This document shows positions 20,301-49,691 of a DNA stretch of 64,000 nucleotides, one piece after another. The stretch lies in NCBI GenBank assembly GCA_037783545.1, contig JBBELK010001477.1:84571-148570 (forward strand), read 5' to 3'. This DNA is from Henricia sp. BOLD:AAB3569. Lineage: Eukaryota; Echinodermata; Asteroidea; Spinulosida; Echinasteridae. A program made the translations under genes and the position numbers. The notes beneath the pieces are model-generated. The model saw only the letters and a list, made by a program, of their open reading frames with translations. It was not told where the DNA came from and made no database searches. Numbering within the stretch: position 1 is the stretch's first letter; the number at the start of each line of letters is the position of its first letter.

Positions 20301-20678
20301 GACAAATTTGGAAATCAAGGAATTTTCCAACCAACTTCAAATTTTGCATGCTCCAAACTGTATATATTCCGCACTTGTCATGCAAAATTGACAGATTTTC
20401 GCTGGGAAATGACGGAGAAATTTCAGAGTTTAGGGAAAACGGAGCTCGGCTGCGTGGTTATTCCCCTAACCGTGGCTGTTGGGACACCCTGCGCCGCGCT
20501 GGTGTACATTTGTACGGCCGTTGACTCACCCCAGATTGTGACGGGAATTAGGTCAAAGTGTGTCCCAAATGCCGGCAAATTTGGAAATCAATGAATTTTC
20601 CAACCAACTTCAAATTTTGCATGCTCCAAACTGTATATATTCCGCACTTGTCATGCAAAATTGACAGATTTTCGCTGG
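17373..20678 (+). repeat. HOR unit, 12 monomers (3306 bp), lacking a TAG end
   Basis: The order is t1, t2, t3, t4, t5, CCCATATG unit, ATTTCCC unit, t9, t10, t11, then two 273-bp units. It joins the t1-t5 head of the 13-mer to the middle of the preceding unit. The last two monomers are short forms. One has GGGAATTGGGTC and GCCGACAAA (20252-20310). The final one has AATCAATGAATT near 20588, which introduces a stop in the frame open elsewhere. It is the only zone B unit that does not end in a TAG monomer. Confidence 0.88.
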
Positions 20679-23600
20679 GAAATGACGGAGAAATTTCAGA
20701 GTTTAGGGAAAACGGAGCTCGGCTGCGTGGTTATTCCCCTAACCGTGGCTGTTGGGACACCCTGCGCCGCGCTGGTGTACATTTGTACGGCCGTTGACTC
20801 ACCCCAGATTGTGACGGGAATTAGGTCAAAGTGTGTCCCAAATGCCGGCAAATTTGGAAATCAAGGAATTTTCCAACCAACTTCAAATTTTGCATGCTCC
20901 AAACTGTATATATTCCGCACTTGTCATGCAAAATTGACAGATTTTCGCTGGGAAATGACGGAGACATTTCAGAGTTTAGGGAAAACGGAGCTCGGCTGCG
21001 TGGTTATTCCCCTGACCGTGGCTGTTGGGACACCCTGCGCATGCGCCGCGCTGGTGTACATTTGTACGGCCGTTGACTCACCCCAGATTGTGACGGGAAT
21101 TAGGTCAAAGTGTGTCCCAAATGCCGGCAAATTTGGAAATCAAGGAATTTTCCAACCAACTTCAAATTTTGCATGCTCCAAACTGTATATATTCGGCACT
21201 TGTCATGCAAAATTGACAGATTTTCGCTGGGAAATGACGGAGAAATTTCAGAGTTTAGGGAAAACGGAGCTCGGCTGCGTGGTTATTCCCCTAACCGTAG
21301 CTGTTGGGACACCCTGCGCCGCGCTGGTGTACATTTGTACGGCCGTTGACTCACCCCAGATTGTGACGGGAATTAGGTCAAAGTGTGTCCCAAATGCCGG
21401 CAAATTTGGAAATCAAGGAATTTTCCAACCAACTTCAAATTTTGCATGCTCCAAACTGTATATATTCCGCACTTGTCATGCAAAATTGACAGATTTTCGC
21501 TGGGAAATGACGGAGACATTTCAGAGTTTAGGGAAAACGGAGCTCGGCTGCGTGGTTATTCCCCTAACCGTGGCTGTTGGGACACCATGCGCATGCGCCG
21601 CGCTGGTGTACATTTGTACGGCCGTTGACTCACCCCAGATTGTGACGGGAATTAGGTCAAAGTGTGTCCCAAATGCCGGCAAATTTGGAAATCAAGGAAT
21701 TTTCCAACCAACTTCAAATTTTGCATGCTCCAAACTGTATATATTCCGCACTTGTCATGCAAAATTGACAGATTTTCGCTGGGAAATGACGGAGAAATTT
21801 CAGAGTTTAGGGAAAACGAAGCTCGGCTGCGTGGTTATTCCCCTAACCGTGGCTGTTGGGACACCCTGCGCCGCGCTGGTGTACATTTGTATGGCCGTTG
21901 ACTCACCCCAGATTGTGACGGGAATTAGGTCAAAGTGTGTCCCAAATGCCGGCAAATTTGGAAATCAAGGAATTTTCCAACCAACTTCAAATTTTGCATG
22001 CTCCAAACTGTATATATTCCGCACTTGTCATGCAAAATTGACAGATTTTCGCTGTGAAATGACGGAGAAATTTCAGAGTTTAGGGAAAACGGAGCTCGGC
22101 TGCGTGGTTATTCCCCTAACCGTGGCTGTTGGGACACCCTGCGCATGCGCCGCGCTGGTGTACATTTGTACGGCCGTTGACTCACCCCAGATTGTGACGG
22201 GAATTAGCTCAAAGTGTTTCCCAAATGCCGGCAAATTTGGAAATCAAGGAATTTTCCAACCAACTTCAAATTTTGCATGCTCCAAACTGTATATATTCCG
22301 CACTTGTCATGGAAAATTGACAGATTTTCGCTGGGAAATGACGGAGAAATTTCAGAGTTTAGGGAAAACGGAGCTCGGCTGCGTGGTTATTCCCCTAACC
22401 GTGGCTGTTGGGACACCCTGCGCCGCGCTGGTGTACATTTGTACGGCCGTTGACTCACCCCAGATTGTGACGGGAATTAGGTCAAAGTGTGTCCCAAATG
22501 CCGGCAAATTTGGAAATCAAGGAATTGTCCAACCAACTTCAAATTTTGCATGCTCCAAACTGTATATATTCGGCACTTGTCATGCAAAATTGACAGATTT
22601 TCGCTGGGAAATGACGGAGAAATTTCAGAGTTTAGGGAAAACGGAGCTCGGCTGCGTGGTTATTCCCCTAACCGTGGCTGTTGGGACACCCTGCGCATGC
22701 GCCGCGCTGGTGTACATTTGTACGGCCGTTGACTCACCCCAGATTGTGACGGGAATTAGCTCAAAGTGTTTCCCAAATGCCGGCAAATTTGGAAATCAAG
22801 GAATTTTCCAACCAACTTCAAATTTTGCATGCTCCAAACTGTATATATTCCGCACTTGTCATGCAAAATTGACAGATTTTCGCTGGGAAATGACGGAGAA
22901 ATTTCAGAGTTTAGGGAAAACGGAGCTCGGCTGCGTGGTTATTCCACTAACCGTGGCTGTTGGGACACCCTGCGCATGCGCCGCGCTGGTGTACATTTGT
23001 ACGGCCGTTGACTCACCCCAGATTGTGACGGGAATTAGCTCAAAGTGTTTCCCAAATGCCGGCAAATTTGGAAATCAAGGAATTTTCCAACCAACTTCAA
23101 ATTTTGCATGCTCCAAACTGTATATATTCCGCACTTGTCATGCAAAATTGACAGATTTTCGCTGGGAAATGACGGAGAAATTTCAGAGTTTAGGGAAAAC
23201 GGAGCTCGGCTGCGTGGTTATTCCCCTAACCGTGGCTGTTGGGACACCCTGCGCATGCGCCGCGCTGGTGTACATTTGTACGGCCGTTGACTCACCCCAG
23301 ATTGTGACGGGAATTAGATCAAAGTGTGTCCCAAATGCCGGCAAATTTGGAAATCAAGGAATTTTCCAACCAACTTCAAATTTTGCATGCTCCAAACTGT
23401 ATATATTCCGCACTTGTCATGCAAAATTGACAGATTTTTGCTGGGAAATGACGGAGAAATTTCAGAGTTTAGAGAAAACGGAGCTCTGCTGCGTGGTTAT
23501 TCCCCTAACCGTGGCTGTTGGGACACCCTGCGCCGCGCTGGTGTACATTTGTACGGCCGTTGACTCACCCCAGATTGTGACGGGAATTAGGTCAAAGTGT

Positions 23601-24269
23601 GTCCCAAATGCCGGCAAATTTGGAAATCAAGGAAATTTCCAACCAACTTCAAATTTTGCATGCTCCAAACTGTATATATTTCGCACTTGTCATGCAAAAT
23701 TGACCGATTTTCGCTGGGAAATGACGGAGAAATTTCAGAGTTTAGGGAAAACGGAGCTCGGCTGCGTGGTTATTCCCCTAACCGTGGCTGTTGGGACACC
23801 CTGCGCATGCGCCGCGCTGGTGTACATTTGTACGGCCGTTGACTCACCCCAGATTGTGACGGGAATTAGGTCAAAGTGTGTCCCAAATGCCGGCAAATTT
23901 GGAAATCAAGGAATTTTCCAACCAACTTCAAATTTTGCATGCTCCAAACTGTATATATTCCGCACTTGTCATGCAAAATTGACAGATTTTCGCTGGGAAA
24001 TGACGGAGAAATTTCAGAGTTTAGGGAAAACGGAGCTCTGCTGCGTGGTTATTCCCCTAACCGTGGCTGTTGGGACACCCTGCGCCGCGCTGGTGTACAT
24101 TTGTACGGCCGTTGACTCACCCCAGATTGAGACGGGAATTAGGTCAAAGTGTGTCCCAAATGCCGGCAATTTTGGAAATCAAGGAATTTTCCAACCAACT
24201 TCAAATTTTGCATGCTCCAAACTGTATATATTCCGCACTTGTCATGCAAAATTGACAGATTTTCGCTAG
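20679..24269 (+). repeat. Complete 13-monomer HOR unit (3591 bp), copy 1
   Basis: All types t1 to t13 are present once and in order: seven 279-bp and six 273-bp monomers. Boundaries: t1 20679-20951, t2 -21230, t3 -21503, t4 -21782, t5 -22055 (ends TGT instead of TGG), t6 -22334, t7 -22607, t8 -22886, t9 -23165, t10 -23444, t11 -23717, t12 -23996, t13 -24269. It is a near-identical partner of 39174-42764. Confidence 0.95.
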
Positions 24270-26750
24270 GAAATGACGGAGAAATTTCAGAGTTTAGGGA
24301 AAACGGAGCTCGGCTGCGTGGTTATTCCCCTAACCGTGGCTGTTGGGACACCCTGCGCCGCGCTGGTGTACATTTGTACGGCCGTTGACTCACCCCAGAT
24401 TGTGACGGGAATTAGGTCAAAGTGTGTCCCAAATGCCGGCAAATTTGGAAATCAAGGAATTTTCCAACCAACTTCAAATTTTGCATGCTCCAAACTGTAT
24501 ATATTCCGCACTTGTCATGCAAAATTGACAGATTTTCGCTGGGAAATGACGGAGACATTTCAGAGTTTAGGGAAAACGGAGCTCGGCTGCGTGGTTATTC
24601 CCCTGACCGTGGCTGTTGGGACACCCTGCGCATGCGCCGCGCTGGTGTACATTTGTACGGCCGTTGACTCACCCCAGATTGTGACGGGAATTAGGTCAAA
24701 GTGTGTCCCAAATGCCGGCAAATTTGGAAATCAAGGAATTTTCCAACCAACTTCAAATTTTGCATGCTCCAAACTGTATATATTCGGCACTTGTCATGCA
24801 AAATTGACAGATTTTCGCTGGGAAATGACGGAGAAATTTCAGAGTTTAGGGAAAACGGAGCTCGGCTGCGTGGTTATTCCCCTAACCGTGGCTGTTGGGA
24901 CACCCTGCGCCGCGCTGGTGTACATTTGTACGGCCGTTGACTCACCCCATATTGTGACGGGAATTAGGTCAAAGTGTGTCCCAAATGCCGGCAAATTTGG
25001 AAATCAAGGAATTTTCCAACCAACTTCAAATTTTGCATGCTCCAAACTGTATATATTCCGCACTTGTCATGCAAAATTGACAGATTTTCGCTGGGAAATG
25101 ACGGAGACATTTCAGAGTTTAGGGAAAACGGAGCTCGGCTGCGTGGTTATTCCCCTAACCGTGGCTGTTGGGACACCATGCGCATGCGCCGCGCTGGTGT
25201 ACATTTGTACGGCCGTTGACTCACCCCAGATTGTGACGGGAATTAGGTCAAAGTGTGTCCCAAATGCCGGCAAATTTGGAAATCAAGGAATTTTCCAACC
25301 AACTTCAAATTTTGCATGCTCCAAACTGTATATATTCCGCACTTGTCATGCAAAATTGACAGATTTTCGCTGGGAAATGACGGAGAAATTTCAGAGTTTA
25401 GGGAAAACGAAGCTCGGCTGCGTGGTTATTCCCCTAACCGTGGCTGTTGGGACACCCTGCGCCGCGCTGGTGTACATTTGTATGGCCGTTGACTCACCCC
25501 AGATTGTGACGGGAATTAGGTCAAAGTGTGTCCCAAATGCCGGCAAATTTGGAAATCAAGGAATTTTCCAACCAACTTCAAATTTTGCATGCTCCAAACT
25601 GTATATATTCCGCACTTGTCATGCAAAATTGACAGATTTTCGCTGTGAAATGACGGAGAAATTTCAGAGTTTAGGGAAAACGGAGCTCGGCTGCGTGGTT
25701 ATTCCCCTAACCGTGGCTGTTGGGACACCCTGCGCATGCGCCGCGCTGGTGTACATTTGTACGGCCGTTGACTCACCCCAGATTTTGACGGGAATTAGCT
25801 CAAAGTGTTTCCCAAATGCCGGCAAATTTGGAAATCAAGGAATTTTCCAACCAACTTCAAATTTTGCATGCTCCAAACTGTATATATTCCGCACTTGTCA
25901 TGCAAAATTGACAGATTTTTGCTGGGAAATGACGGAGAAATTTCAGAGTTTAGAGAAAACGGAGCTCTGCTGCGTGGTTATTCCCCTAACCGTGGCTGTT
26001 GGGACACCCTGCGCCGCGCTGGTGTACATTTGTACGGCCGTTGACTCACCCCAGATTGTGACGGGAATTAGGTCAAAGTGTGTCCCAAATGCCGGCAAAT
26101 TTGGAAATCAAGGAAATTTCCAACCAACTTCAAATTTTGCATGCTCCAAACTGTATATATTTCGCACTTGTCATGCAAAATTGACCGATTTTCGCTGGGA
26201 AATGACGGAGAAATTTCAGAGTTTAGGGAAAACGGAGCTCGGCTGCGTGGTTATTCCCCTAACCGTGGCTGTTGGGACACCCTGCGCATGCGCCGCGCTG
26301 GTGTACATTTGTACGGCCGTTGACTCACCCCAGATTGTGACGGGAATTAGGTCAAAGTGTGTCCCAAATGCCGGCAAATTTGGAAATCAAGGAATTTTCC
26401 AACCAACTTCAAATTTTGCATGCTCCAAACTGTATATATTCCGCACTTGTCATGCAAAATTGACAGATTTTCGCTGGGAAATGACGGAGAAATTTCAGAG
26501 TTTAGGGAAAACGGAGCTCTGCTGCGTGGTTATTCCCCTAACCGTGGCTGTTGGGACACCCTGCGCCGCGCTGGTGTACATTTGTACGGCCGTTGACTCA
26601 CCCCAGATTGAGACGGGAATTAGGTCAAAGTGTGTCCCAAATGCCGGCAATTTTGGAAATCAAGGAATTTTCCAACCAACTTCAAATTTTGCATGCTCCA
26701 AACTGTATATATTCCGCACTTGTCATGCAAAATTGACAGATTTTCGCTAG
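24270..26750 (+). repeat. Shortened HOR unit, 9 monomers (2481 bp), t6/t10 fusion
   Basis: The order is t1 to t5, a t6/t10 hybrid, t11, t12, t13. The hybrid (25647-25925) has the t6 marker TTAGCTCAAAGTGTTTCC near 25795 but normal CATGCAAA and the t10 ending TTTTTGCTGG near 25918. The exchange therefore fell between about 25812 and 25905. Exactly 1110 bp are missing relative to the 13-mer. Confidence 0.92.
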
Positions 26751-29700
26751 GAAATGACGGAGAAATTTCAGAGTTTAGGGAAAACGGAGCTCGGCTGCGT
26801 GGTTATTCCCCTAACCGTGGCTGTTGGGACACCCTGCGCCGCGCTGGTGTACATTTGTACGGCCGTTGACTCACCCCAGATTGTGACGGGAATTAGGTCA
26901 AAGTGTGTCCCAAATGCCGGCAAATTTGGAAATCAAGGAATTTTCCAACCAACTTCAAATTTTGCATGCTCCAAACTGTATATATTCCGCACTTGTCATG
27001 CAAAATTGACAGATTTTCGCTGGGAAATGACGGAGACATTTCAGAGTTTAGGGAAAACGGAGCTCGGCTGCGTGGTTATTCCCCTGACCGTGGCTGTTGG
27101 GACACCCTGCGCATGCGCCGCGCTGGTGTACATTTGTACGGCCGTTGACTCACCCCAGATTGTGACGGGAATTAGGTCAAAGTGTGTCCCAAATGCCGGC
27201 AAATTTGGAAATCAAGGAATTTTCCAACCAACTTCAAATTTTGCATGCTCCAAACTGTATATATTCGGCACTTGTCATGCAAAATTGACAGATTTTCGCT
27301 GGGAAATGACGGAGAAATTTCAGAGTTTAGGGAAAACGGAGCTCGGCTGCGTGGTTATTCCCCTAACCGTGGCTGTTGGGACACCCTGCGCCGCGCTGGT
27401 GTACATTTGTACGGCCGTTGACTCACCCCATATTGTGACGGGAATTAGGTCAAAGTGTGTCCCAAATGCCGGCAAATTTGGAAATCAAGGAATTTTCCAA
27501 CCAACTTCAAATTTTGCATGCTCCAAACTGTATATATTCCGCACTTGTCATGCAAAATTGACAGATTTTCGCTGGGAAATGACGGAGACATTTCAGAGTT
27601 TAGGGAAAACGGAGCTCGGCTGCGTGGTTATTCCCCTAACCGTGGCTGTTGGGACACCATGCGCATGCGCCGCGCTGGTGTACATTTGTACGGCCGTTGA
27701 CTCACCCCAGATTGTGACGGGAATTAGGTCAAAGTGTGTCCCAAATGCCGGCAAATTTGGAAATCAAGGAATTTTCCAACCAACTTCAAATTTTGCATGC
27801 TCCAAACTGTATATATTCCGCACTTGTCATGCAAAATTGACAGATTTTCGCTGGGAAATGACGGAGAAATTTCAGAGTTTAGGGAAAACGAAGCTCGGCT
27901 GCGTGGTTATTCCCCTAACCGTGGCTGTTGGGACACCCTGCGCCGCGCTGGTGTACATTTGTATGGCCGTTGACTCACCCCAGATTGTGACGGGAATTAG
28001 GTCAAAGTGTGTCCCAAATGCCGGCAAATTTGGAAATCAAGGAATTTTCCAACCAACTTCAAATTTTGCATGCTCCAAACTGTATATATTCCGCACTTGT
28101 CATGCAAAATTGACAGATTTTCGCTGTGAAATGACGGAGAAATTTCAGAGTTTAGGGAAAACGGAGCTCGGCTGCGTGGTTATTCCCCTAACCGTGGCTG
28201 TTGGGACACCCTGCGCATGCGCCGCGCTGGTGTACATTTGTACGGCCGTTGACTCACCCCAGATTTTGACGGGAATTAGCTCAAAGTGTTTCCCAAATGC
28301 CGGCAAATTTGGAAATCAAGGAATTTTCCAACCAACTTCAAATTTTGCATGCTCCAAACTGTATATATTCCGCACTTGTCATGGAAAATTGACAGATTTT
28401 CGCTGGGAAATGACGGAGAAATTTCAGAGTTTAGGGAAAACGGAGCTCGGCTGCGTGGTTATTCCCCTAACCGTGGCTGTTGGGACACCCTGCGCCGCGC
28501 TGGTGTACATTTGTACGGCCGTTGACTCACCCCAGATTGTGACGGGAATTAGGTCAAAGTGTGTCCCAAATGCCGGCAAATTTGGAAATCAAGGAATTGT
28601 CCAACCAACTTCAAATTTTGCATGCTCCAAACTGTATATATTCGGCACTTGTCATGCAAAATTGACAGATTTTCGCTGGGAAATGACGGAGAAATTTCAG
28701 AGTTTAGGGAAAACGGAGCTCGGCTGCGTGGTTATTCCCCTAACCGTGGCTGTTGGGACACCCTGCGCCGCGCTGGTGTACATTTGTACGGCCGTTGACT
28801 CACCCCAGATTGTGACGGGAATTAGGTCAAAGTGTGTCCCAAATGCCGGCAAATTTGGAAATCAAGGAATTTTCCAACCAACTTCAAATTTTGCATGCTC
28901 CAAACTGTATATATTCCGCACTTGTCATGCAAAATTGACAGATTTTCGCTGGGAAATGACGGAGAAATTTCAGAGTTTAGGGAAAACGGAGCTCGGCTGC
29001 GTGGTTATTCCCCTAACCGTGGCTGTTGGGACACCCTGCGCATGCGCCGCGCTGGTGTACATTTGTACGGCCGTTGACTCACCCCAGATTGTGACGGGAA
29101 TTAGGTCAAAGTGTGTCCCAAATGCCGGCAAATTTGGAAATCAAGGAATTGTCCAACCAACTTCAAATTTTGCATGCTCCAAACTGTATATATTCCGCAC
29201 TTGTCATGCAAAATTGACAGATTTTCGCTGGGAAATGACGGAGACATTTCAGAGTTTAGGGAAAACGGAGCTCGGCTGCGTGGTTATTCCCCTAACCGTG
29301 GCTGTTGGGACACCATGCGCATGCGCCGCGCTGGTGTACATTTGTACGGCCGTTGACTCACCCCAGATTGTGACGGGAATTAGGTCAAAGTGTGTCCCAA
29401 ATGCCGGCAAATTTGGAAATCAAGGAATTTTCCAACCAACTTCAAATTTTGCATGCTCCAAACTGTATATATTCCGCACTTGTCATGCAAAATTGACAGA
29501 TTTTCGCTGGGAAATGACGGAGAAATTTCAGAGTTTAGGGAAAACGAAGCTCGGCTGCGTGGTTATTCCCCTAACCGTGGCTGTTGGGACACCCTGCGCC
29601 GCGCTGGTGTACATTTGTATGGCCGTTGACTCACCCCAGATTGTGACGGGAATTAGGTCAAAGTGTGTCCCAAATGCCGGCAAATTTGGAAATCAAGGAA

Positions 29701-31718
29701 TTTTCCAACCAACTTCAAATTTTGCATGCTCCAAACTGTATATATTCCGCACTTGTCATGCAAAATTGACAGATTTTCGCTGTGAAATGACGGAGAAATT
29801 TCAGAGTTTAGGGAAAACGGAGCTCGGCTGCGTGGTTATTCCACTAACCGTGGCTGTTGGGACACCCTGCGCATGCGCCGCGCTGGTGTACATTTGTACG
29901 GCCGTTGACTCACCCCAGATTGTGACGGGAATTAGCTCAAAGTGTTTCCCAAATGCCGGCAAATTTGGAAATCAAGGAATTTTCCAACCAACTTCAAATT
30001 TTGCATGCTCCAAACTGTATATATTCCGCACTTGTCATGCAAAATTGACAGATTTTCGCTGGGAAATGACGGAGAAATTTCAGAGTTTAGGGAAAACGGA
30101 GCTCGGCTGCGTGGTTATTCCCCTAACCGTGGCTGTTGGGACACCCTGCGCATGCGCCGCGCTGGTGTACATTTGTACGGCCGTTGACTCACCCCAGATT
30201 GTGACGGGAATTAGATCAAAGTGTGTCCCAAATGCCGGCAAATTTGGAAATCAAGGAATTTTCCAACCAACTTCAAATTTTGCATGCTCCAAACTGTATA
30301 TATTCCGCACTTGTCATGCAAAATTGACAGATTTTTGCTGGGAAATGACGGAGAAATTTCAGAGTTTAGAGAAAACGGAGCTCTGCTGCGTGGTTATTCC
30401 CCTAACCGTGGCTGTTGGGACACCCTGCGCCGCGCTGGTGTACATTTGTACGGCCGTTGACTCACCCCAGATTGTGACGGGAATTAGGTCAAAGTGTGTC
30501 CCAAATGCCGGCAAATTTGGAAATCAAGGAAATTTCCAACCAACTTCAAATTTTGCATGCTCCAAACTGTATATATTTCGCACTTGTCATGCAAAATTGA
30601 CCGATTTTCGCTGGGAAATGACGGAGAAAATTCAGAGTTTAGGGAAAACGGAGCTCGGCTGCGTGGTTATTCCCCTAACCGTGGCTGTTGGGACACCCTG
30701 CGCATGCGCCGCGCTGGTGTACATTTGTACGGCCGTTGACTCACCCCAGATTGTGACGGGAATTAGATCAAAGTGTGTCCCAAATGCCGGCAAATTTGGA
30801 AATCAAGGAATTTTCCAACCAACTTCAAATTTTGCATGCTCCAAACTGTATATATTCCGCACTTGTCATGCAAAATTGACAGATTTTTGCTGGGAAATGA
30901 CGGAGAAATTTCAGAGTTTAGAGAAAACGGAGCTCTGCTGCGTGGTTATTCCCCTAACCGTGGCTGTTGGGACACCCTGCGCCGCGCTGGTGTACATTTG
31001 TACGGCCGTTGACTCACCCCAGATTGCGACGGGAATTAGGTCAAAGTGTGTCCCAAATGCCGGCAAATTTGGAAATCAAGGAAATTTCCAACCAACTTCA
31101 AATTTTGCATGCTCCAAACTGTATATATTTCGCACTTGTCATGCAAAATTGACCGATTTTCGCTGGGAAATGACGGAGAAATTTCAGAGTTTAGGGAAAA
31201 CGGAGCTCGGCTGCGTGGTTATTCCCCTAACCGTGGCTGTTGGGACACCCTGCGCATGCGCCAAGCTGGTGTACATTTGTACGGCCGTTGACTCACCCCA
31301 GATTGTGACGGGAATTAGGTCAAAGTGTGTCCCAAATGCCGGCAAATTTGGAAATCAAGGAATTTTCCAACCAACTTCAAATTTTGCATGCTCCAAACTG
31401 TATATATTCCGCACTTGTCATGCAAAATTGACAGATTTTCGCTGGGAAATGACGGAGAAATTTCAGAGTTTAGGGAAAACGGAGCTCTGCTGCGTGGTTA
31501 TTCCCCTAACCGTGGCTGTTGGGACACCCTGCGCCGCGCTGGTGTACATTTGTACGGCCGTTGACTCACCCCAGATTGAGACGGGAATTAGGTCAAAGTG
31601 TGCCCCAAATGCCGGCAATTTTGGAAATCAAGGAATTTTCCAACCAACTTCAAATTTTGCATGCTCCAAACTGTATATATTCCGCACTTGTCATGCAAAA
31701 TTGACAGATTTTCGCTAG
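26751..31718 (+). repeat. Expanded HOR unit, 18 monomers (4968 bp)
   Basis: The order is t1 to t7, a plain 273 unit (28680-28952), a 279 unit with AATTGTCC (28953-29231), then t4, t5, t9, t10, t11, a t12/t10 hybrid (30615-30893, with private GAGAAAATTC), a second t11 (ATTGCGACGG), t12 (GCCAAGCTGG) and t13 (GTGTGCCCC). Two separate expansions are visible: re-entry at t4 after t7, and a local duplication of the t10-t11 pair. Confidence 0.9.
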
Positions 31719-34700
31719 GAAATGACGGAGAAATTTCAGAGTTTAGGGAAAACGGAGCTCGGCTGCGTGGTTATTCCCCTAACCGTGGCTGTTGGGACAC
31801 CCTGCGCCGCGCTGGTGTACATTTGTACGGCCGTTGACTCACCCCAGATTGTGACGGGAATTAGGTCAAAGTGTGTCCCAAATGCCGGCAAATTTGGAAA
31901 TCAAGGAATTTTCCAACCAACTTCAAATTTTGCATGCTCCAAACTGTATATATTCCGCACTTGTCATGCAAAATTGACAGATTTTCGCTGGGAAATGACG
32001 GAGACATTTCAGAGTTTAGGGAAAACGGAGCTCGGCTGCGTGGTTATTCCCCTGACCGTGGCTGTTGGGACACCCTGCGCATGCGCCGCGCTGGTGTACA
32101 TTTGTACGGCCGTTGACTCACCCCAGATTGTGACGGGAATTAGGTCAAAGTGTGTCCCAAATGCCGGCAAATTTGGAAATCAAGGAATTTTCCAACCAAC
32201 TTCAAATTTTGCATGCTCCAAACTGTATATATTCGGCACTTGTCATGCAAAATTGACAGATTTTCGCTGGGAAATGACGGAGAAATTTCAGAGTTTAGGG
32301 AAAACGGAGCTCGGCTGCGTGGTTATTCCCCTAACCGTAGCTGTTGGGACACCCTGCGCCGCGCTGGTGTACATTTGTACGGCCGTTGACTCACCCCATA
32401 TTGTGACGGGAATTAGGTCAAAGTGTGTCCCAAATGCCGGCAAATTTGGAAATCAAGGAATTTTCCAACCAACTTCAAATTTTGCATGCTCCAAACTGTA
32501 TATATTCCGCACTTGTCATGCAAAATTGACAGATTTTCGCTGGGAAATGACGGAGACATTTCAGAGTTTAGGGAAAACGGAGCTCGGCTGCGTGGTTATT
32601 CCCCTAACCGTGGCTGTTGGGACACCATGCGCATGCGCCGCGCTGGTGTACATTTGTACGGCCGTTGACTCACCCCAGATTGTGACGGGAATTAGGTCAA
32701 AGTGTGTCCCAAATGCCGGCAAATTTGGAAATCAAGGAATTTTCCAACCAACTTCAAATTTTGCATGCTCCAAACTGTATATATTCCGCACTTGTCATGC
32801 AAAATTGACAGATTTTCGCTGGGAAATGACGGAGAAATTTCAGAGTTTAGGGAAAACGAAGCTCGGCTGCGTGGTTATTCCCCTAACCGTGGCTGTTGGG
32901 ACACCCTGCGCCGCGCTGGTGTACATTTGTATGGCCGTTGACTCACCCCAGATTGTGACGGGAATTAGGTCAAAGTGTGTCCCAAATGCCGGCAAATTTG
33001 GAAATCAAGGAATTTTCCAACCAACTTCAAATTTTGCATGCTCCAAACTGTATATATTCCGCACTTGTCATGCAAAATTGACAGATTTTCGCTGTGAAAT
33101 GACGGAGAAATTTCAGAGTTTAGGGAAAACGGAGCTCGGCTGCGTGGTTATTCCCCTAACCGTGGCTGTTGGGACACCCTGCGCATGCGCCGCGCTGGTG
33201 TACATTTGTACGGCCGTTGACTCACCCCAGATTGTGACGGGAATTAGCTCAAAGTGTTTCCCAAATGCCGGCAAATTTGGAAATCAAGGAATTTTCCAAC
33301 CAACTTCAAATTTTGCATGCTCCAAACTGTATATATTCCGCACTTGTCATGGAAAATTGACAGATTTTCGCTGGGAAATGACGGAGAAATTTCAGAGTTT
33401 AGGGAAAACGGAGCTCGGCTGCGTGGTTATTCCCCTAACCGTGGCTGTTGGGACACCCTGCGCCGCGCTGGTGTACATTTGTACGGCCGTTGACTCACCC
33501 CAGATTGTGACGGGAATTAGGTCAAAGTGTGTCCCAAATGCCGGCAAATTTGGAAATCAAGGAATTGTCCAACCAACTTCAAATTTTGCATGCTCCAAAC
33601 TGTATATATTCGGCACTTGTCATGCAAAATTGACAGATTTTCGCTGGGAAATGACGGAGAAATTTCAGAGTTTAGGGAAAACGGAGCTCGGCTGCGTGGT
33701 TATTCCCCTAACCGTGGCTGTTGGGACACCCTGCGCATGCGCCGCGCTGGTGTACATTTGTACGGCCGTTGACTCACCCCAGATTGTGACGGGAATTAGC
33801 TCAAAGTGTTTCCCAAATGCCGGCAAATTTGGAAATCAAGGAATTTTCCAACCAACTTCAAATTTTGCATGCTCCAAACTGTATATATTCCGCACTTGTC
33901 ATGCAAAATTGACAGATTTTCGCTGGGAAATGACGGAGAAATTTCAGAGTTTAGGGAAAACGGAGCTCGGCTGCGTGGTTATTCCCCTAACCGTGGCTGT
34001 TGGGACACCCTGCGCATGCGCCGCGCTGGTGTACATTTATACGGCCGTTGACTCACCCCAGATTGTGACGGGAATTAGATCAAAGTGTGTCCCAAATGCC
34101 GGCAAATTTGGAAATCAAGGAATTTTCCAACCAACTTCAAATTTTGCATGCTCCAAACTGTATATATTCCGCACTTGTCATGCAAAATTGACAGATTTTT
34201 GCTGGGAAATGACGGAGAAATTTCAGAGTTTAGAGAAAACGGAGCTCTGCTGCGTGGTTATTCCCCTAACCGTGGCTGTTGGGACACCCTGCGCCGCGCT
34301 GGTGTACATTTGTACGGCCGTTGACTCACCCCAGATTGTGACGGGAATTAGGTCAAAGTGTGTCCCAAATGCCGGCAAATTTGGAAATCAAGGAAATTTC
34401 CAACCAACTTCAAATTTTGCATGCTCCAAACTGTATATATTTCGCACTTGTCATGCAAAATTGACCGATTTTCGCTGGGAAATGACGGAGAAATTTCAGA
34501 GTTTAGGGAAAACGGAGCTCGGCTGCGTGGTTATTCCCCTAACCGTGGCTGTTGGGACACCCTGCGCATGCGCCGCGCTGGTGTACATTTGTACGGCCGT
34601 TGACTCACCCCAGATTGTGACGGGAATTAGGTCAAAGTGTGTCCCAAATGCCGGCAAATTTGGAAATCAAGGAATTTTCCAACCAACTTCAAATTTTGCA

Positions 34701-36692
34701 TGCTCCAAACTGTATATATTCCGCACTTGTCATGCAAAATTGACAGATTTTCGCTGGGAAATGACGGAGAAATTTCAGAGTTTAGGGAAAACGGAGCTCG
34801 GCTGCGTGGTTATTCCCCTAACCGTGGCTGTTGGGACACCCTGCGCCGCGCTGGTGTACATTTGTACGGCCGTTGACTCACCCCAGATTGTGACGGGAAT
34901 TAGGTCAAAGTGTGTCCCAAATGCCGGCAAATTTGGAAATCAAGGAATTGTCCAACCAACTTCAAATTTTGCATGCTCCAAACTGTATATATTCGGCACT
35001 TGTCATGCAAAATTGACAGATTTTCGCTGGGAAATGACGGAGAAATTTCAGAGTTTAGGGAAAACGGAGCTCGGCTGCGTGGTTATTCCCCTAACCGTGG
35101 CTGTTGGGACACCCTGCGCATGCGCCGCGCTGGTGTACATTTGTACGGCCGTTGACTCACCCCAGATTGTGACGGGAATTAGCTCAAAGTGTTTCCCAAA
35201 TGCCGGCAAATTTGGAAATCAAGGAATTTTCCAACCAACTTCAAATTTTGCATGCTCCAAACTGTATATATTCCGCACTTGTCATGCAAAATTGACAGAT
35301 TTTCGCTGGGAAATGACGGAGAAATTTCAGAGTTTAGGGAAAACGGAGCTCGGCTGCGTGGTTATTCCACTAACCGTGGCTGTTGGGACACCCTGCGCAT
35401 GCGCCGCGCTGGTGTACATTTGTACGGCCGTTGACTCACCCCAGATTGTGACGGGAATTAGCTCAAAGTGTTTCCCAAATGCCGGCAAATTTGGAAATCA
35501 AGGAATTTTCCAACCAACTTCAAATTTTGCATGCTCCAAACTGTATATATTCCGCACTTGTCATGCAAAATTGACAGATTTTCGCTGGGAAATGACGGAG
35601 AAATTTCAGAGTTTAGGGAAAACGGAGCTCGGCTGCGTGGTTATTCCCCTAACCGTGGCTGTTGGGACACCCTGCGCATGCGCCGCGCTGGTGTACATTT
35701 ATACGGCCGTTGACTCACCCCAGATTGTGACGGGAATTAGATCAAAGTGTGTCCCAAATGCCGGCAAATTTGGAAATCAAGGAATTTTCCAACCAACTTC
35801 AAATTTTGCATGCTCCAAACTGTATATATTCCGCACTTGTCATGCAAAATTGACAGATTTTTGCTGGGAAATGACGGAGAAATTTCAGAGTTTAGAGAAA
35901 ACGGAGCTCTGCTGCGTGGTTATTCCCCTAACCGTGGCTGTTGGGACACCCTGCGCCGCGCTGGTGTACATTTGTACGGCCGTTGACTCACCCCAGATTG
36001 TGACGGGAATTAGGTCAAAGTGTGTCCCAAATGCCGGCAAATTTGGAAATCAAGGAAATTTCCAACCAACTTCAAATTTTGCATGCTCCAAACTGTATAT
36101 ATTTCGCACTTGTCATGCAAAATTGACCGATTTTCGCTGGGAAATGACGGAGAAATTTCAGAGTTTAGGGAAAACGGAGCTCGGCTGCGTGGTTATTCCC
36201 CTAACCGTGGCTGTTGGGACACCCTGCGCATGCGCCGCGCTGGTGTACATTTGTACGGCCGTTGACTCACCCCAGATTGTGACGGGAATTAGGTCAAAGT
36301 GTGTCCCAAATGCCGGCAAATTTGGAAATCAAGGAATTTTCCAACCAACTTCAAATTTTGCATGCTCCAAACTGTATATATTCCGCACTTGTCATGCAAA
36401 ATTGACAGATTTTCGCTGGGAAATGACGGAGAAATTTCAGAGTTTAGGGAAAACGGAGCTCTGCTGCGTGGTTATTCCCCTAACCGTGGCTGTTGGGACA
36501 CCCTGCGCCGCGCTGGTGTACATTTGTACGGCCGTTGACTCACCCCAGATTGAGACGGGAATTAGGTCAAAGTGTGTCCCAAATGCCGGCAATTTTGGAA
36601 ATCAAGGAATTTTCCAACCAACTTCAAATTTTGCATGCTCCAAACTGTATATATTCCGCACTTGTCATGCAAAATTGACAGATTTTCGCTAG
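31719..36692 (+). repeat. Expanded HOR unit, 18 monomers (4974 bp)
   Basis: The order is t1 to t7, a t8/t9-like unit, t10, t11, t12, then t7, t8, t9, t10, t11, t12, t13. After the first t12 (34479-34757) the unit jumps back to t7 at 34758, so the t7-t12 section is present twice. The first pass lacks one of the two TTAGCTC units. Both t10 copies carry the private TTTATACGG (near 34038 and 35699), shared with 39174-42764. Confidence 0.92.
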
Positions 36693-39173
36693 GAAATGAC
36701 GGAGAAATTTCAGAGTTTAGGGAAAACGGAGCTCGGCTGCGTGGTTATTCCCCTAACCGTGGCTGTTGGGACACCCTGCGCCGCGCTGGTGTACATTTGT
36801 ACGGCCGTTGACTCACCCCAGATTGTGACGGGAATTAGGTCAAAGTGTGTCCCAAATGCCGGCAAATTTGGAAATCAAGGAATTTTCCAACCAACTTCAA
36901 ATTTTGCATGCTCCAAACTGTATATATTCCGCACTTGTCATGCAAAATTGACAGATTTTCGCTGGGAAATGACGGAGACATTTCAGAGTTTAGGGAAAAC
37001 GGAGCTCGGCTGCGTGGTTATTCCCCTGACCGTGGCTGTTGGGACACCCTGCGCATGCGCCGCGCTGGTGTACATTTGTACGGCCGTTGACTCACCCCAG
37101 ATTGTGACGGGAATTAGGTCAAAGTGTGTCCCAAATGCCGGCAAATTTGGAAATCAAGGAATTTTCCAACCAACTTCAAATTTTGCATGCTCCAAACTGT
37201 ATATATTCGGCACTTGTCATGCAAAATTGACAGATTTTCGCTGGGAAATGACGGAGAAATTTCAGAGTTTAGGGAAAACGGAGCTCGGCTGCTTGGTTAT
37301 TCCCCTAACCGTGGCTGTTGGGACACCCTGCGCCGCGCTGGTGTACATTTGTACGGCCGTTGACTCACCCCATATTGTGACGGGAATTAGGTCAAAGTGT
37401 GTCCCAAATGCCGGCAAATTTGGAAATCAAGGAATTTTCCAACCAACTTCAAATTTTGCATGCTCCAAACTGTATATATTCCGCACTTGTCATGCAAAAT
37501 TGACAGATTTTCGCTGGGAAATGACGGAGACATTTCAGAGTTTAGGGAAAACGGAGCTCGGCTGCGTGGTTATTCCCCTAACCGTGGCTGTTGGGACACC
37601 ATGCGCATGCGCCGCGCTGGTGTACATTTGTACGGCCGTTGACTCACCCCAGATTGTGACGGGAATTAGGTCAAAGTGTGTCCCAAATGCCGGCAAATTT
37701 GGAAATCAAGGAATTTTCCAACCAACTTCAAATTTTGCATGCTCCAAACTGTATATATTCCGCACTTGTCATGCAAAATTGACAGATTTTCGCTGGGAAA
37801 TGACGGAGAAATTTCAGAGTTTAGGGAAAACGAAGCTCGGCTGCGTGGTTATTCCCCTAACCGTGGCTGTTGGGACACCCTGCGCCGCGCTGGTGTACAT
37901 TTGTATGGCCGTTGACTCACCCCAGATTGTGACGGGAATTAGGTCAAAGTGTGTCCCAAATGCCGGCAAATTTGGAAATCAAGGAATTTTCCAACCAACT
38001 TCAAATTTTGCATGCTCCAAACTGTATATATTCCGCACTTGTCATGCAAAATTGACAGATTTTCGCTGTGAAATGACGGAGAAATTTCAGAGTTTAGGGA
38101 AAACGGAGCTCGGCTGCGTGGTTATTCCCCTAACCGTGGCTGTTGGGACACCCTGCGCATGCGCCGCGCTGGTGTACATTTGTACGGCCGTTGACTCACC
38201 CCAGATTGTGACGGGAATTAGCTCAAAGTGTTTCCCAAATGCCGGCAAATTTGGAAATCAAGGAATTTTCCAACCAACTTCAAATTTTGCATGCTCCAAA
38301 CTGTATATATTCCGCACTTGTCATGGAAAATTGACAGATTTTCGCTGGGAAATGACGGAGAAATTTCAGAGTTTAGGGAAAACGGAGCTCGGCTGCGTGG
38401 TTAGTCCCCTAACCGTGGCTGTTGGGACACCCTGCGCCGCGCTGGTGTACATTTGTACGGCCGTTGACTCACCCCAGATTGTGACGGGAATTAGGTCAAA
38501 GTGTGTCCCAAATGCCGGCAAATTTGGAAATCAAGGAAATTTCCAACCAACTTCAAATTTTGCATGCTCCAAACTGTATATATTTCGCACTTGTCATGCA
38601 AAATTGACCGATTTTCGCTGGGAAATGACGGAGAAATTTCAGAGTTTAGGGAAAACGGAGCTCGGCTGCGTGGTTATTCCCCTAACCGTGGCTGTTGGGA
38701 CACCCTGCGCATGCGCCAAGCTGGTGTACATTTGTACGGCCGTTGACTCACCCCAGATTGTGACGGGAATTAGGTCAAAGTGTGTCCCAAATGCCGGCAA
38801 ATTTGGAAATCAAGGAATTTTCCAACCAACTTCAAATTTTGCATGCTCCAAACTGTATATATTCCGCACTTGTCATGCAAAATTGACAGATTTTCGCTGG
38901 GAAATGACGGAGAAATTTCAGAGTTTAGGGAAAACGGAGCTCTGCTGCGTGGTTATTCCCCTAACCGTGGCTGTTGGGACACCCTGCGCCGCGCTGGTGT
39001 ACATTTGTACGGCCGTTGACTCACCCCAGATTGAGACGGGAATTAGGTCAAAGTGTGCCCCAAATGCCGGCAATTTTGGAAATCAAGGAATTTTCCAACC
39101 AACTTCAAATTTTGCATGCTCCAAACTGTATATATTCCGCACTTGTCATGCAAAATTGACAGATTTTCGCTAG
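36693..39173 (+). repeat. Shortened HOR unit, 9 monomers (2481 bp), t7/t11 fusion
   Basis: The order is t1 to t6, a t7/t11 hybrid, t12 (GCCAAGCTGG), t13 (GTGTGCCCC). The hybrid (38349-38621) starts with the t7 variant GGTTAGTCCCC (about 38400) and ends with the t11 markers GGAAATTTCC (about 38535) and TTGACCG. It has the same length as 24270-26750 but a different breakpoint, so the two deletions are independent. Confidence 0.92.
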
Positions 39174-42100
39174 GAAATGACGGAGAAATTTCAGAGTTTA
39201 GGGAAAACGGAGCTCGGCTGCGTGGTTATTCCCCTAACCGTGGCTGTTGGGACACCCTGCGCCGCGCTGGTGTACATTTGTACGGCCGTTGACTCACCCC
39301 AGATTGTGACGGGAATTAGGTCAAAGTGTGTCCCAAATGCCGGCAAATTTGGAAATCAAGGAATTTTCCAACCAACTTCAAATTTTGCATGCTCCAAACT
39401 GTATATATTCCGCACTTGTCATGCAAAATTGACAGATTTTCGCTGGGAAATGACGGAGACATTTCAGAGTTTAGGGAAAACGGAGCTCGGCTGCGTGGTT
39501 ATTCCCCTGACCGTGGCTGTTGGGACACCCTGCGCATGCGCCGCGCTGGTGTACATTTGTACGGCCGTTGACTCACCCCAGATTGTGACGGGAATTAGGT
39601 CAAAGTGTGTCCCAAATGCCGGCAAATTTGGAAATCAAGGAATTTTCCAACCAACTTCAAATTTTGCATGCTCCAAACTGTATATATTCGGCACTTGTCA
39701 TGCAAAATTGACAGATTTTCGCTGGGAAATGACGGAGAAATTTCAGAGTTTAGGGAAAACGGAGCTCGGCTGCGTGGTTATTCCCCTAACCGTAGCTGTT
39801 GGGACACCCTGCGCCGCGCTGGTGTACATTTGTACGGCCGTTGACTCACCCCATATTGTGACGGGAATTAGGTCAAAGTGTGTCCCAAATGCCGGCAAAT
39901 TTGGAAATCAAGGAATTTTCCAACCAACTTCAAATTTTGCATGCTCCAAACTGTATATATTCCGCACTTGTCATGCAAAATTGACAGATTTTCGCTGGGA
40001 AATGACGGAGACATTTCAGAGTTTAGGGAAAACGGAGCTCGGCTGCGTGGTTATTCCCCTAACCGTGGCTGTTGGGACACCATGCGCATGCGCCGCGCTG
40101 GTGTACATTTGTACGGCCGTTGACTCACCCCAGATTGTGACGGGAATTAGGTCAAAGTGTGTCCCAAATGCCGGCAAATTTGGAAATCAAGGAATTTTCC
40201 AACCAACTTCAAATTTTGCATGCTCCAAACTGTATATATTCCGCACTTGTCATGCAAAATTGACAGATTTTCGCTGGGAAATGACGGAGAAATTTCAGAG
40301 TTTAGGGAAAACGAAGCTCGGCTGCGTGGTTATTCCCCTAACCGTGGCTGTTGGGACACCCTGCGCCGCGCTGGTGTACATTTGTATGGCCGTTGACTCA
40401 CCCCAGATTGTGACGGGAATTAGGTCAAAGTGTGTCCCAAATGCCGGCAAATTTGGAAATCAAGGAATTTTCCAACCAACTTCAAATTTTGCATGCTCCA
40501 AACTGTATATATTCCGCACTTGTCATGCAAAATTGACAGATTTTCGCTGTGAAATGACGGAGAAATTTCAGAGTTTAGGGAAAACGGAGCTCGGCTGCGT
40601 GGTTATTCCCCTAACCGTGGCTGTTGGGACACCCTGCGCATGCGCCGCGCTGGTGTACATTTGTACGGCCGTTGACTCACCCCAGATTGTGACGGGAATT
40701 AGCTCAAAGTGTTTCCCAAATGCCGGCAAATTTGGAAATCAAGGAATTTTCCAACCAACTTCAAATTTTGCATGCTCCAAACTGTATATATTCCGCACTT
40801 GTCATGGGAAATTGACAGATTTTCGCTGGGAAATGACGGAGAAATTTCAGAGTTTAGGGAAAACGGAGCTCGGCTGCGTGGTTATTCCCCTAACCGTGGC
40901 TGTTGGGACACCCTGCGCCGCGCTGGTGTACATTTGTACGGCCGTTGACTCACCCCAGATTGTGACGGGAATTAGGTCAAAGTGTGTCCCAAATGCCGGC
41001 AAATTTGGAAATCAAGGAATTGTCCAACCAACTTCAAATTTTGCATGCTCCAAACTGTATATATTCGGCACTTGTCATGCAAAATTGACAGATTTTCGCT
41101 GGGAAATGACGGAGAAATTTCAGAGTTTAGGGAAAACGGAGCTCGGCTGCGTGGTTATTCCCCTAACCGTGGCTGTTGGGACACCCTGCGCATGCGCCGC
41201 GCTGGTGTACATTTGTACGGCCGTTGACTCACCCCAGATTGTGACGGGAATTAGCTCAAAGTGTTTCCCAAATGCCGGCAAATTTGGAAATCAAGGAATT
41301 TTCCAACCAACTTCAAATTTTGCATGCTCCAAACTGTATATATTCCGCACTTGTCATGCAAAATTGACAGATTTTCGCTGGGAAATGACGGAGAAATTTC
41401 AGAGTTTAGGGAAAACGGAGCTCGGCTGCGTGGTTATTCCACTAACCGTGGCTGTTGGGACACCCTGCGCATGCGCCGCGCTTGTGTACATTTGTACGGC
41501 CGTTGACTCACCCCAGATTGTGACGGGAATTAGCTCAAAGTGTTTCCCAAATGCCGGCAAATTTGGAAATCAAGGAATTTTCCAACCAACTTCAAATTTT
41601 GCATGCTCCAAACTGTATATATTCCGCACTTGTCATGCAAAATTGACAGATTTTCGCTGGGAAATGACGGAGAAATTTCAGAGTTTAGGGAAAACGGAGC
41701 TCGGCTGCGTGGTTATTCCCCTAACCGTGGCTGTTGGGACACCCTGCGCATGCGCCGCGCTGGTGTACATTTATACGGCCGTTGACTCACCCCAGATTGT
41801 GACGGGAATTAGATCAAAGTGTGTCCCAAATGCCGGCAAATTTGGAAATCAAGGAATTTTCCAACCAACTTCAAATTTTGCATGCTCCAAACTGTATATA
41901 TTCCGCACTTGTCATGCAAAATTGACAGATTTTTGCTGGGAAATGACGGAGAAATTTCAGAGTTTAGAGAAAACGGAGCTCTGCTGCGTGGTTATTCCCC
42001 TAACCGTGGCTGTTGGGACACCCTGCGCCGCGCTGGTGTACATTTGTACGGCCGTTGACTCACCCCAGATTGTGACGGGAATTAGGTCAAAGTGTGTCCC

Positions 42101-42764
42101 AAATGCCGGCAAATTTGGAAATCAAGGAAATTTCCAACCAACTTCAAATTTTGCATGCTCCAAACTGTATATATTTCGCACTTGTCATGCAAAATTGACC
42201 GATTTTCGCTGGGAAATGACGGAGAAATTTCAGAGTTTAGGGAAAACGGAGCTCGGCTGCGTGGTTATTCCCCTAACCGTGGCTGTTGGGACACCCTGCG
42301 CATGCGCCGCGCTGGTGTACATTTGTACGGCCGTTGACTCACCCCAGATTGTGACGGGAATTAGGTCAAAGTGTGTCCCAAATGCCGGCAAATTTGGAAA
42401 TCAAGGAATTTTCCAACCAACTTCAAATTTTGCATGCTCCAAACTGTATATATTCCGCACTTGTCATGCAAAATTGACAGATTTTCGCTGGGAAATGACG
42501 GAGAAATTTCAGAGTTTAGGGAAAACGGAGCTCTGCTGCGTGGTTATTCCCCTAACCGTGGCTGTTGGGACACCCTGCGCCGCGCTGGTGTACATTTGTA
42601 CGGCCGTTGACTCACCCCAGATTGAGACGGGAATTAGGTCAAAGTGTGTCCCAAATGCCGGCAATTTTGGAAATCAAGGAATTTTCCAACCAACTTCAAA
42701 TTTTGCATGCTCCAAACTGTATATATTCCGCACTTGTCATGCAAAATTGACAGATTTTCGCTAG
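39174..42764 (+). repeat. Complete 13-monomer HOR unit (3591 bp), copy 2
   Basis: Types t1 to t13 occur once each, with the same monomer lengths as copy 1 at 20679-24269. By reading I found four differences from copy 1: G to T at 39854, A to G at 40808, G to T at 41483 and G to A at 41773. Others may have been missed. That is about 99.9% identity over 3.6 kb for units 18.5 kb apart. Confidence 0.94.
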
Positions 42765-48575: not shown

Positions 48576-49672
48576 GAAATGACGGAGAAATTTCAGAGTT
48601 TAGGGAAAACGGAGCTCGGCTGCGTGGTTATTCCCCTAACCGTGGCTGTTGGGACACCCTGCGCCGCGCTGGTGTACATTTGTACGGCCGTTGACTCACC
48701 CCAGATTGTGACGGGAATTAGGTCAAAGTGTGTCCCAAATGCCGGCAAATTTGGAAATCAAGGAATTGTCCAACCAACTTCAAATTTTGCATGCTCCAAA
48801 CTGTATATATTCCGCACTTGTCATGCAAAATTGACAGATTTTCGCTGGGAAATGACGGAGAAATTTCAGAGTTTAGGGAAAACGGAGCTCGGCTGCGTGG
48901 TTATTCCCCTAACCGTGGCTGTTGGGACACCCTGCGCATGCGCCGCGCTGGTGTACATTTGTACGGCCGTTGACTCACCCCAGATTGTGACGGGAATTAG
49001 GTCAAAGTGTGTCCTAAATGCCGGCAAATTTGGAAATCAAGGAATTTTCCAACCAACTTCAAATTTTGCATGCTCCAAACTGTATATATTCCGCACTTGT
49101 CATGCAAAATTGACAGATTTTCGCTGGGAAATGACGGAGAAATTTCAGAGTTTAGGGAAAACGGAGCTCGGCTGCATGGTTATTCCCCTAACCGTGGCTG
49201 TTGGGACACCCTGCGCATGCGCCGCGCTGGTGTACATTTGTACGGCCGTTGACTCACCCCAGATTGTGACGGGAATTAGTTCAAAGTGTGTCCCAAATGC
49301 CGGCAAATTTGGAAATCAAGGAATTTTCCAACCAACTTCAAATTTTGCATGCTCCAAACTGTATATATTCCGCACTTGTCATGCAAAATTGACAGATTTT
49401 CGCTGGGAAATGACTGAGAAATTTCAGAGTTTAGGGAAAACGGAGCTCGGCTGCGTGGTTATTCCACTAACCGTGGCTGTTGGGACACCCTGCGCATGCG
49501 CTGGTGTACATTTCTACGGCCGTTGACTCACCCCAGATTGTGACGGGAATTAGGTCAAAGTGTGTCCCAAATGCCGGCAAATTTGGAAATCAAGGAATTT
49601 TCCAACCAACTTCAAATTTTGCATGCTCCAAACTGTATATATTTCGCACTTGTCATGCAAAATTGACAGATT

Positions 49673-49691
49673 TTCGCTGGGAAATGACGGA
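49673..49691 (+). other. CENP-B-box-like stretch at the monomer junction (weak)
   Basis: The stretch TTCGCTGGGAAATGACGGA resembles the mammalian CENP-B box core (TTCG, four bases, A, two bases, CGGG), but has about four extra bases between the TTCG and CGG halves and ends CGGA. It is present in almost every monomer; the t10 (TTTTTGCTGG) and TAG variants alter it. I regard it as a resemblance, not an established box. Confidence 0.2.

What the first reader, a model, noticed from the sequence alone, without database searches (positions are those of the whole stretch)
20679..42764. A 13-monomer, 3591-bp higher-order repeat with near-identical complete copies 18.5 kb apart
Complete units at 20679-24269 and 39174-42764 have the same 13 types in the same order. 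I found four base differences (at 39854, 40808, 41483 and 41773), whereas neighbouring monomers within a unit differ much more. This is the alpha-satellite-like HOR signature and implies recent spread of whole units rather than single monomers.
Basis: seen in the sequence. Interest (0 to 1): 0.72.

Follow-up and report, generated by a model that had tools for sequence, protein, structure and literature searches.

The report
Sea-star satellite with irregular block duplications

Summary
The pair is real: its two 3591-bp copies differ at exactly the four stated bases. But 13 monomers is not the natural unit. The match is 3927 bp long and is one of 166 multi-monomer block pairs in a 148.6-kb all-satellite contig. 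Lags vary widely. Lag 13 ranks first in the contig, but 26, 39 and 65 are ordinary and 52 only mildly raised. Monomers (273/279 bp) are 98.2% alike, without diverged types as in alpha satellite. This is a weak, irregular HOR pattern of the Arabidopsis CEN178 kind; exploratory simulations resemble local copying of ~10-monomer blocks. The monomer makes up roughly 6% of a 741-Mb genome, probably a sea star's.

Outside the window, arrays are broken by a co-amplified non-satellite island, 40-56 kb in the two copies mapped. Probes find about 35 copies at 96-100% identity, most sharing one island/satellite junction. That is the more interesting structure. Centromere function was not testable; assembly error was not excluded.

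The parts
1..64000 (+). Head-to-tail satellite array, monomers mostly of 273 or 279 bp (6-bp ATGCGC-type length difference); the window is the last 64 kb of a 148,570-bp contig that is satellite throughout
   Evidence: Tandem Repeats Finder one row 1-64000; 230 complete monomers cut; contig 537 fuzzy anchors on one strand, none on the other
20678..24604 (+).
   Evidence: longest stretch with at most 4 mismatches at lag 18495; 4 differences
39173..43099 (+). Block copy B, lag 18,495 bp = 67 monomers
31707..33914 (+). Partial third copy: first 8 monomers of block A (lag 40 from A, lag 27 to B), 2 differences from A
   Evidence: one search run table
34746..36953 (+). Partial copy: 8 monomers matching A from its seventh monomer on (lag 45 from A, lag 22 to B)
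   Evidence: one search run table
23050..28383 (+). Adjacent (tandem) duplication of a 9-monomer block, lag 2481 bp
   Evidence: 2853 bp with at most 4 mismatches at lag 2481 starting 23050
50882..54763 (+). Second long block, 3882 bp with at most 4 mismatches, whose partner lies at 58626-62507 (lag 7744 bp, 28 monomers)
   Evidence: 13-monomer pair with 2 differences
58626..62507 (+). Partner of the 50882 block
18273..45087 (+). Zone of one block lineage: a marker of three variants over two adjacent monomers at 18273, 21579, 25170, 27651, 29307, 32619, 37593, 40074, 43113 and 44769; these two monomers are identical in all ten copies (the marker selects for its own variants, so part of this is by construction)
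   Evidence: offsets 0 and +1 show 0 differences to the reference in every row

Best explanation
It is a homogeneous satellite array in which blocks of several to about twenty monomers (of the order of ten, ~3 kb) are repeatedly copied to places some kilobases away, and other blocks are lost. Overlapping copies with different breakpoints give a mosaic of near-identical blocks at irregular lags. Shown: the blocks, their irregular lags, their nesting and the lack of a period with echoes. Inferred: the physical process, namely unequal exchange between sister chromatids or homologues and/or ectopic recombinational copying (break-induced replication or long-tract conversion) during repair in the array. 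Function, if any, is most likely that of other abundant satellites (heterochromatin, perhaps centromere); that was not tested.
For: Runs of monomers with at most 1 difference in the contig: 166 of length 3 or more, 38 of length 5 or more, longest 21; the lags of the 38 spread from 7 to 79; 410 of 537 monomers lie in a run of 3 or more. 50 order shuffles gave a mean of 15.7 runs, longest 5. Nesting adds up: 40+27 = 67 and 45+22 = 67. Neighbours are no more alike than average (lag 1 4.93, all pairs 4.86, lags 2-20 4.51, lags over 320 5.43), so copying is in multi-monomer blocks and mostly local. Simulation, 8 seeds per setting: copying within +-30 monomers, mean block 10, 200 events gave medians of 142 runs, 37 long runs, longest 17, 6 tandem-like and median lag 30, against 166, 38, 21, 7 and 27 observed. 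One other contig shows the same style: on C193 marker spacings 837-831-1110-1383-831 recur starting at 163968, 171454 and 184472, i.e. 7486 and 13018 bp apart (read from the first 100 places listed).
Against: Lag 13 ranks first of 150 in the contig and lag 52 is mildly raised, and near-tandem runs of 9 and 6 monomers at lag 13 exist upstream of the window, so a weak preference for that length is not excluded. The simulations are a hand-picked grid with a hand-set starting array, judged by eye, not a fit. Adjacent tandem duplication (mean length 10, 200 events) reached the run count (166) but with 74 long runs and 17 tandem-like ones against 38 and 7; with 100 events it came near the long runs (34) but with 76 runs and 15 tandem-like. 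So it is less good, not excluded. The steady-state runs (2 seeds per setting) are only a rough guide. No reads were available, so an assembler could have made or collapsed copies.
Confidence: 0.8

Rival explanations
1. A regular alpha-satellite-like HOR array with a 13-monomer unit, here partly rearranged.
For: Two 13-monomer blocks with 4 differences; marker spacing of exactly 3591 bp once, 21579 to 25170, with six consecutive monomers at lag 13 within 0-2 differences; lag 13 first of 150 lags in the contig, lag 52 15th; near-tandem runs of 9 and 6 monomers at lag 13 upstream of the window.
Against: No echo at 26, 39, 65, 78 or 91 in the contig (ranks 106, 63, 74, 77, 96 of 150); marker spacings 12, 13, 9, 6, 12, 18, 9, 11, 6; monomers 98.2% alike, no discrete types. 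Of the tandem runs with length at least equal to lag, none is at 13: 21 at 21, 11 at 10, 9 at 9, 4 at 4 and five of 3 at 3.
Confidence: 0.07
2. Assembly artefact: near-identical reads placed twice or a tangled repeat graph produced the duplicated blocks.
For: The contig is pure satellite and ends in it; the assembly also holds a 48.6-kb contig with three mitochondrial COX1 copies 16,221 bp apart, so repeat tangles may occur; one-base length variants cluster in parts of the window. No reads to check.
Against: Copies differ by scattered substitutions and some share rare one-base variants (274-bp monomers at 53273 and 61017, 7744 bp apart); blocks have many lengths and lags, nested consistently; the same style appears on another contig.
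Confidence: 0.08
3. The monomer carries a function as an encoded repeat protein: one frame is open through the consensus monomer and both main lengths are multiples of three.
For: Frame +0 is open through the consensus; stop-free stretches reach 3178 codons in the contig; an open frame arises in only 179 of 5000 shuffled monomers.
Against: Substitutions ignore the frame: 57 synonymous, 144 nonsynonymous and 11 stop variants against 53.1, 147.6 and 11.3 expected; 47 of 537 monomers have lengths not divisible by three.
Confidence: 0.02

Closest known systems
Arabidopsis thaliana CEN178/CEN180 satellite with its HORs as defined by TRASH (PMC10199239, passages read)
   Same: HORs taken as pairs of blocks of 3 or more monomers with few variants, which may overlap and need no monomer classes; [quoted passage not shown]
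   Different: Monomer 273/279 bp rather than 178; an animal, probably a sea star; centromere role not shown here; island-interrupted arrays
Human alpha-satellite HOR arrays (PMC12385485, passages and section 16 read)
   Same: Head-to-tail monomers; whole multi-monomer units copied with high identity (human chr21 canonical 11-mer copies differ by 0.90% on average; this pair by 0.11%)
   Different: Human units consist of strongly diverged monomer types (17.7-22.3% mean within unit for three chr21 HORs) in a tandem period; here about 1.8% and no period with echoes
Satellites of other sea stars (Asterias amurensis, 1.80% of the genome annotated as satellite, PMC11090083, passages read; Marthasterias glacialis is in the species table of the SRF survey, PMC10153287, passages read)
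   Same: Class of animal, if the placing is right
   Different: No monomer sequence of those species could be compared here

Membership tests
Satellite DNA (long tandem array) | Head-to-tail near-identical monomers over tens of kilobases, high copy number | tested here: met
   138,882 exact copies of a 25-mer in the genome, 0 of its reversed control
Alpha-satellite-type (regular) HOR | Discrete, clearly diverged monomer types within the unit | tested here: not met
   4.7 differences per about 276 bp within the unit, 98.2% mean identity overall; human chr21 units 17.7-22.3%
Alpha-satellite-type (regular) HOR | A dominant n-monomer period repeated in tandem, with echoes at multiples | tested here: not met
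   Lag 13 raised and first in the contig, lag 52 mildly raised, lags 26, 39, 65, 78 and 91 not; irregular marker spacings
Alpha-satellite-type (regular) HOR | Unit copies far more alike than monomers inside the unit | tested here: met
   0-1 against 4.7-5.1 differences per monomer
HOR in the TRASH sense | Pair of blocks of at least 3 monomers, each monomer pair within the variant-score limit (default 5) | tested here: met
   166 pairs at the stricter limit of 1 difference; definition from PMC10199239. My differences count a gap as one; TRASH itself was not run
Centromeric satellite | Bound by CENP-A / at the primary constriction | not testable with these tools
   No ChIP, FISH or chromosome map available
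CENP-B-box satellite | Core NTTCGNNNNANNCGGGN (consensus recalled, from no call) | tested here: not met
   0 matches in 64 kb with up to 1 mismatch, 15.45 expected by chance
Protein-coding tandem repeat | Selection against stops and frameshifts | tested here: not met
   11 stop variants against 11.3 expected; 47 of 537 monomers of lengths not divisible by three

The most novel reading that the evidence does not exclude
The satellite belongs to a giant compound repeat shared across chromosomes: satellite arrays of tens of kilobases to over 100 kb alternate with a non-satellite island (40-56 kb where mapped, variable in length) that recurs, with mostly the same island/satellite junction, in about 35 assembled places. 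Islands and arrays would spread between chromosomes as one unit by ectopic exchange, while within each array the satellite is reshuffled locally by ~3-kb block copying; two scales of homogenisation would act at once.
Probability: 0.35. Interest if true: 0.6.

Novelty: new member of a known kind. Interest (0 to 1): 0.33.

Why it matters
It shows how a 'HOR' seen as one near-identical pair can be an ordinary by-product of local block copying in a homogeneous satellite, and that testing the multiples of the period helps to tell the two apart. If the island result holds, this genome offers a marker-rich compound repeat in which exchange between chromosomes could be followed through non-satellite sequence instead of through monomers that all look alike.

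Tried and rejected
Rejected: a coding satellite; the open frame is neutral. CENP-B box core: none. tRNA genes in the window: none. Unusual single-strand DNA fold of one 279-nt stretch: z -1.46, 15 of 200 shuffles as good. Satellite in public viral contigs (one 25-mer) or prokaryote genomes (one 29-mer): no exact match (the tool may leave out records near this genome). Transposase in the island: no Pfam match for two short peptides; for 8 ORFs only two sub-threshold DUF matches, E 0.065 and 0.092; no Rfam family in 7 stretches, 8500 bases. Species: not identified. Literature: six searches in an open-licence library; in the rows listed (titles and abstract starts; 20 of 51, 12 of 15) I saw no paper on a sea-star centromeric satellite or on this monomer.

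Weak points: the genome share of about 6% assumes that other arrays keep the 25-mer as often as this contig (185 exact copies in the window, 462 in the contig of about 538 monomers). Of 1648 first-look candidates only 40 were scored. Counts rest on 40 scored places out of 3399, 74, 2928, 695 and 3536; only one search scored all its candidates (39 of 39). Island identities come from probes of 120 to 1201 bp, not from whole islands; island extents from sparse probe points.
Full report
What was checked. The two stated stretches are each 3591 bp and differ at exactly the four bases named. Cutting the window at a conserved word gives 230 complete monomers, nearly all of 273 or 279 bp. The 6-bp difference is an ATGCGC-type insertion present in about 244 of 537 monomers of the contig. 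Tandem Repeats Finder sees one array from base 1 to 64000. The window is the last 64 kb of contig C1477 (148,570 bp) of a 740.7-Mb assembly in 2104 contigs, and that whole contig is satellite on one strand.

Is it a 13-monomer HOR? In the window, monomers 13 apart differ by 4.46 on average, neighbours by 5.17, all pairs by 4.93, so there is a mild excess. Over the whole contig lag 13 comes first of 150 lags on both measures: 0.1374 of pairs within one difference, with lag 27 next at 0.1373 and a median of 0.061. Against a period of 13, its multiples do not follow: by that share lag 26 ranks 106th, 39 63rd, 65 74th, 78 77th and 91 96th; only 52, 15th, is raised. Inside the window lag 13 ranks 9th by share and 5th by mean difference, behind lags such as 27, 28 and 9.

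The block itself. The collinear match at lag 18,495 bp runs from 20678 to 24604, 3927 bp with 4 mismatches, and differences become more frequent on both sides. A marker of three variants over two adjacent monomers occurs ten times from 18273 to 44769, at spacings of 12, 13, 9, 6, 12, 18, 9, 11 and 6 monomers. Around each copy the similarity to the reference extends a different number of monomers to left and right. The lags add up (40+27 and 45+22 both give 67), as expected of overlapping copies of one lineage. Another block pair (50882 with 58626, lag 7744 bp) is nearly as long (3882 bp), and its 13-monomer core has 2 differences.

How common such blocks are. In the contig, 166 runs of at least 3 monomers with at most one difference each were found, 38 of them at least 5 long, the longest 21; 410 of 537 monomers take part. 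Fifty shuffles of monomer order gave 15.7 such runs on average, at most 43, the longest 5. Neighbouring monomers are not more alike than average (4.93 against 4.86; lags 2-20 4.51), and similarity falls off far away (5.43 beyond 320 monomers). That argues for copying of multi-monomer blocks over short distances, not for slippage of single monomers.

Mechanism. In a grid of simple simulations (64 settings, 8 seeds each, hand-set starting array, judged by eye) local copying within 30 monomers with mean block length 10 and 200 events came near on all five measures; some settings with 60 monomers did almost as well apart from longer lags. Strictly adjacent duplication could reach the number of runs but gave about twice as many long ones and more than twice as many tandem-like ones. 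The steady-state simulations pointed the same way with two seeds each. This is suggestive only. The molecular process (unequal exchange, break-induced replication, conversion) is inferred from general knowledge. With the crown-of-thorns mutation rate of 9.13e-9 per site per generation (PMC10861045, abstract), four differences over 2 x 3591 bp correspond to roughly 60,000 generations. That is my arithmetic, valid only if the rate carries over and no conversion has occurred.

What organism. The mitochondrial contig C2104 (16,221 bp) carries COX1 with 11 in-frame TGA codons. Under the echinoderm code (table 9) eight AAA codons read as asparagine where the invertebrate table gives lysine; that these are conserved asparagines is recalled. 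The tRNAs found before COX1 (minus Leu, Gly, Tyr, then minus Leu, Asn, plus Gln) fit the inverted order of sea stars as I recall it. So it is probably an echinoderm, most likely a sea star; the species is unknown.

Abundance. One 25-mer of the monomer occurs 138,882 times, with no hits for its reversed control. That is at least 38 Mb at 276 bp per copy. Corrected for the share of monomers that keep it exactly here (185 in the window, 462 of about 538 in the contig), it is about 45-48 Mb, roughly 6% of the assembly. Arrays differ by contig: monomers within the small samples from C71 and C142 differ by 2.7 and 3.0 among themselves, but by 7.5 and 11.3 from the window's; C1297 (4.3) is close to the window and C288 (5.6) fairly close (10, 10, 13 and 3 monomers, against 38 of the window's). 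Two variants of the block occur 432 and 480 times and on many contigs (first 100 places listed each), so they are not private to this array. An 822-bp stretch of the block is matched on C1297 at 100% after rounding (the bit score is slightly below the self match), but the best-scoring match of the 3.8 kb around it to the window has 98.7%.

The surroundings beyond the window. A 3-kb probe on C288 holds a junction: 1944 bp without satellite, then satellite. A 350-bp query across it matched across the junction in 38 of 40 scored places (74 candidates), 35 of the 40 at 99-100%; two places (C361, C43) matched only 1-213. A 1201-bp query in the flank was full length or within two bases of it in 36 of 40 scored (3399 candidates). 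A query 4-5 kb upstream of the junction was full length or nearly so at 99-100% in 16 of 40 scored, all on junction contigs; the other 24 were split pieces on other contigs, 91-94% for the main part, as of a dispersed element. Probes about 14.5 and 29.5 kb upstream (distances on C14) fell on junction contigs in 34 and 35 of 40 scored rows, nearly all at 98-100%, plus C1659 at 99% in both; the remaining strays were 91-96%. A 120-bp probe 39-44 kb upstream had 39 candidates, all scored: 35 at 96-100% (some matched in part) on 33 contigs, 32 of which are junction contigs, and 4 at 89-95% elsewhere; four junction contigs (C750, C1685, C475, C1908) lack it.

Layout of the islands. At the points probed, C14 has satellite at 50 kb, none at 60, 70, 85 and 92 kb, and satellite on the same strand at 110 kb. 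C416 has satellite at 30, 107, 120 and 150 kb and none at 60, 80 and 95 kb, with a second junction at 159 kb. So the island is about 40-50 kb on C14 and 44-56 kb on C416 and lies inside arrays. Copies are not uniform: the distance from the 29.5-kb probe to the junction ranges from 15.5 to 50.7 kb over 35 places, so there are large insertions or deletions. On C288 the island lies near the end of a 1.07-Mb contig, after a 78%-identical satellite relic at 1.000 Mb; a probe at 0.960 Mb shows no satellite. Copy numbers are of the assembly and may include both haplotypes; the one sea-star count at hand is 22 chromosomal pseudomolecules in Marthasterias (PMC10015122, abstract). Whether the contigs lie on different chromosomes is unknown. 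The window itself holds no island.

Comparison. The pattern fits the block-pair definition of HOR used for Arabidopsis CEN178 (PMC10199239, passages). The SRF authors suggest that most species do not show rich HOR structure and warn of incidental HORs where the pattern is weak (PMC10153287, passages). It fails two defining features of alpha-satellite HORs (diverged monomer types and a tandem period with echoes). Verdict: real observation, ordinary kind, with a more interesting island structure elsewhere in the same kind of array.

Noticed in passing
L046:1945 (C288:1,047,945) and C14, C416, C704 and about 30 further contigs: Satellite arrays are interrupted by a co-amplified non-satellite island (40-56 kb in two mapped copies, variable), about 35 copies at 96-100% by probes, most with the same island/satellite junction.
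   Followed up: partly
C138:779665-793921: Two island probes hit this contig (at least 0.79 Mb long) at 95% and 91%, about 14 kb apart, a possible old relative or source of the island.
   Followed up: no
L047:2713-2961 and L058 (C288:1,000,001-1,000,300): Satellite relics 74-80% like the monomer (with one 56-bp piece at 98%) inside the island on C14 and upstream of it on C288.
   Followed up: no
C955 (48,576 bp) and C2104 (16,221 bp): C955 carries mitochondrial COX1 three times at 16,221-bp spacing, probably an assembly concatemer of the circular mitochondrial genome.
   Followed up: no
C835 and C62: Long tandem histone gene clusters with about 4.1-kb (C835) and often about 2.4-kb (C62) spacing (150 of 1123 candidates scored).
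   Followed up: no
window 1-64000, frame of the monomer start: One frame is open through the consensus monomer and both main lengths are multiples of three; substitutions show no selection on it.
   Followed up: yes
window 4069-11000 and 49395-61300: Monomers of odd length (274, 280 and others) are listed only in these two parts, none between about 11 and 49 kb.
   Followed up: no
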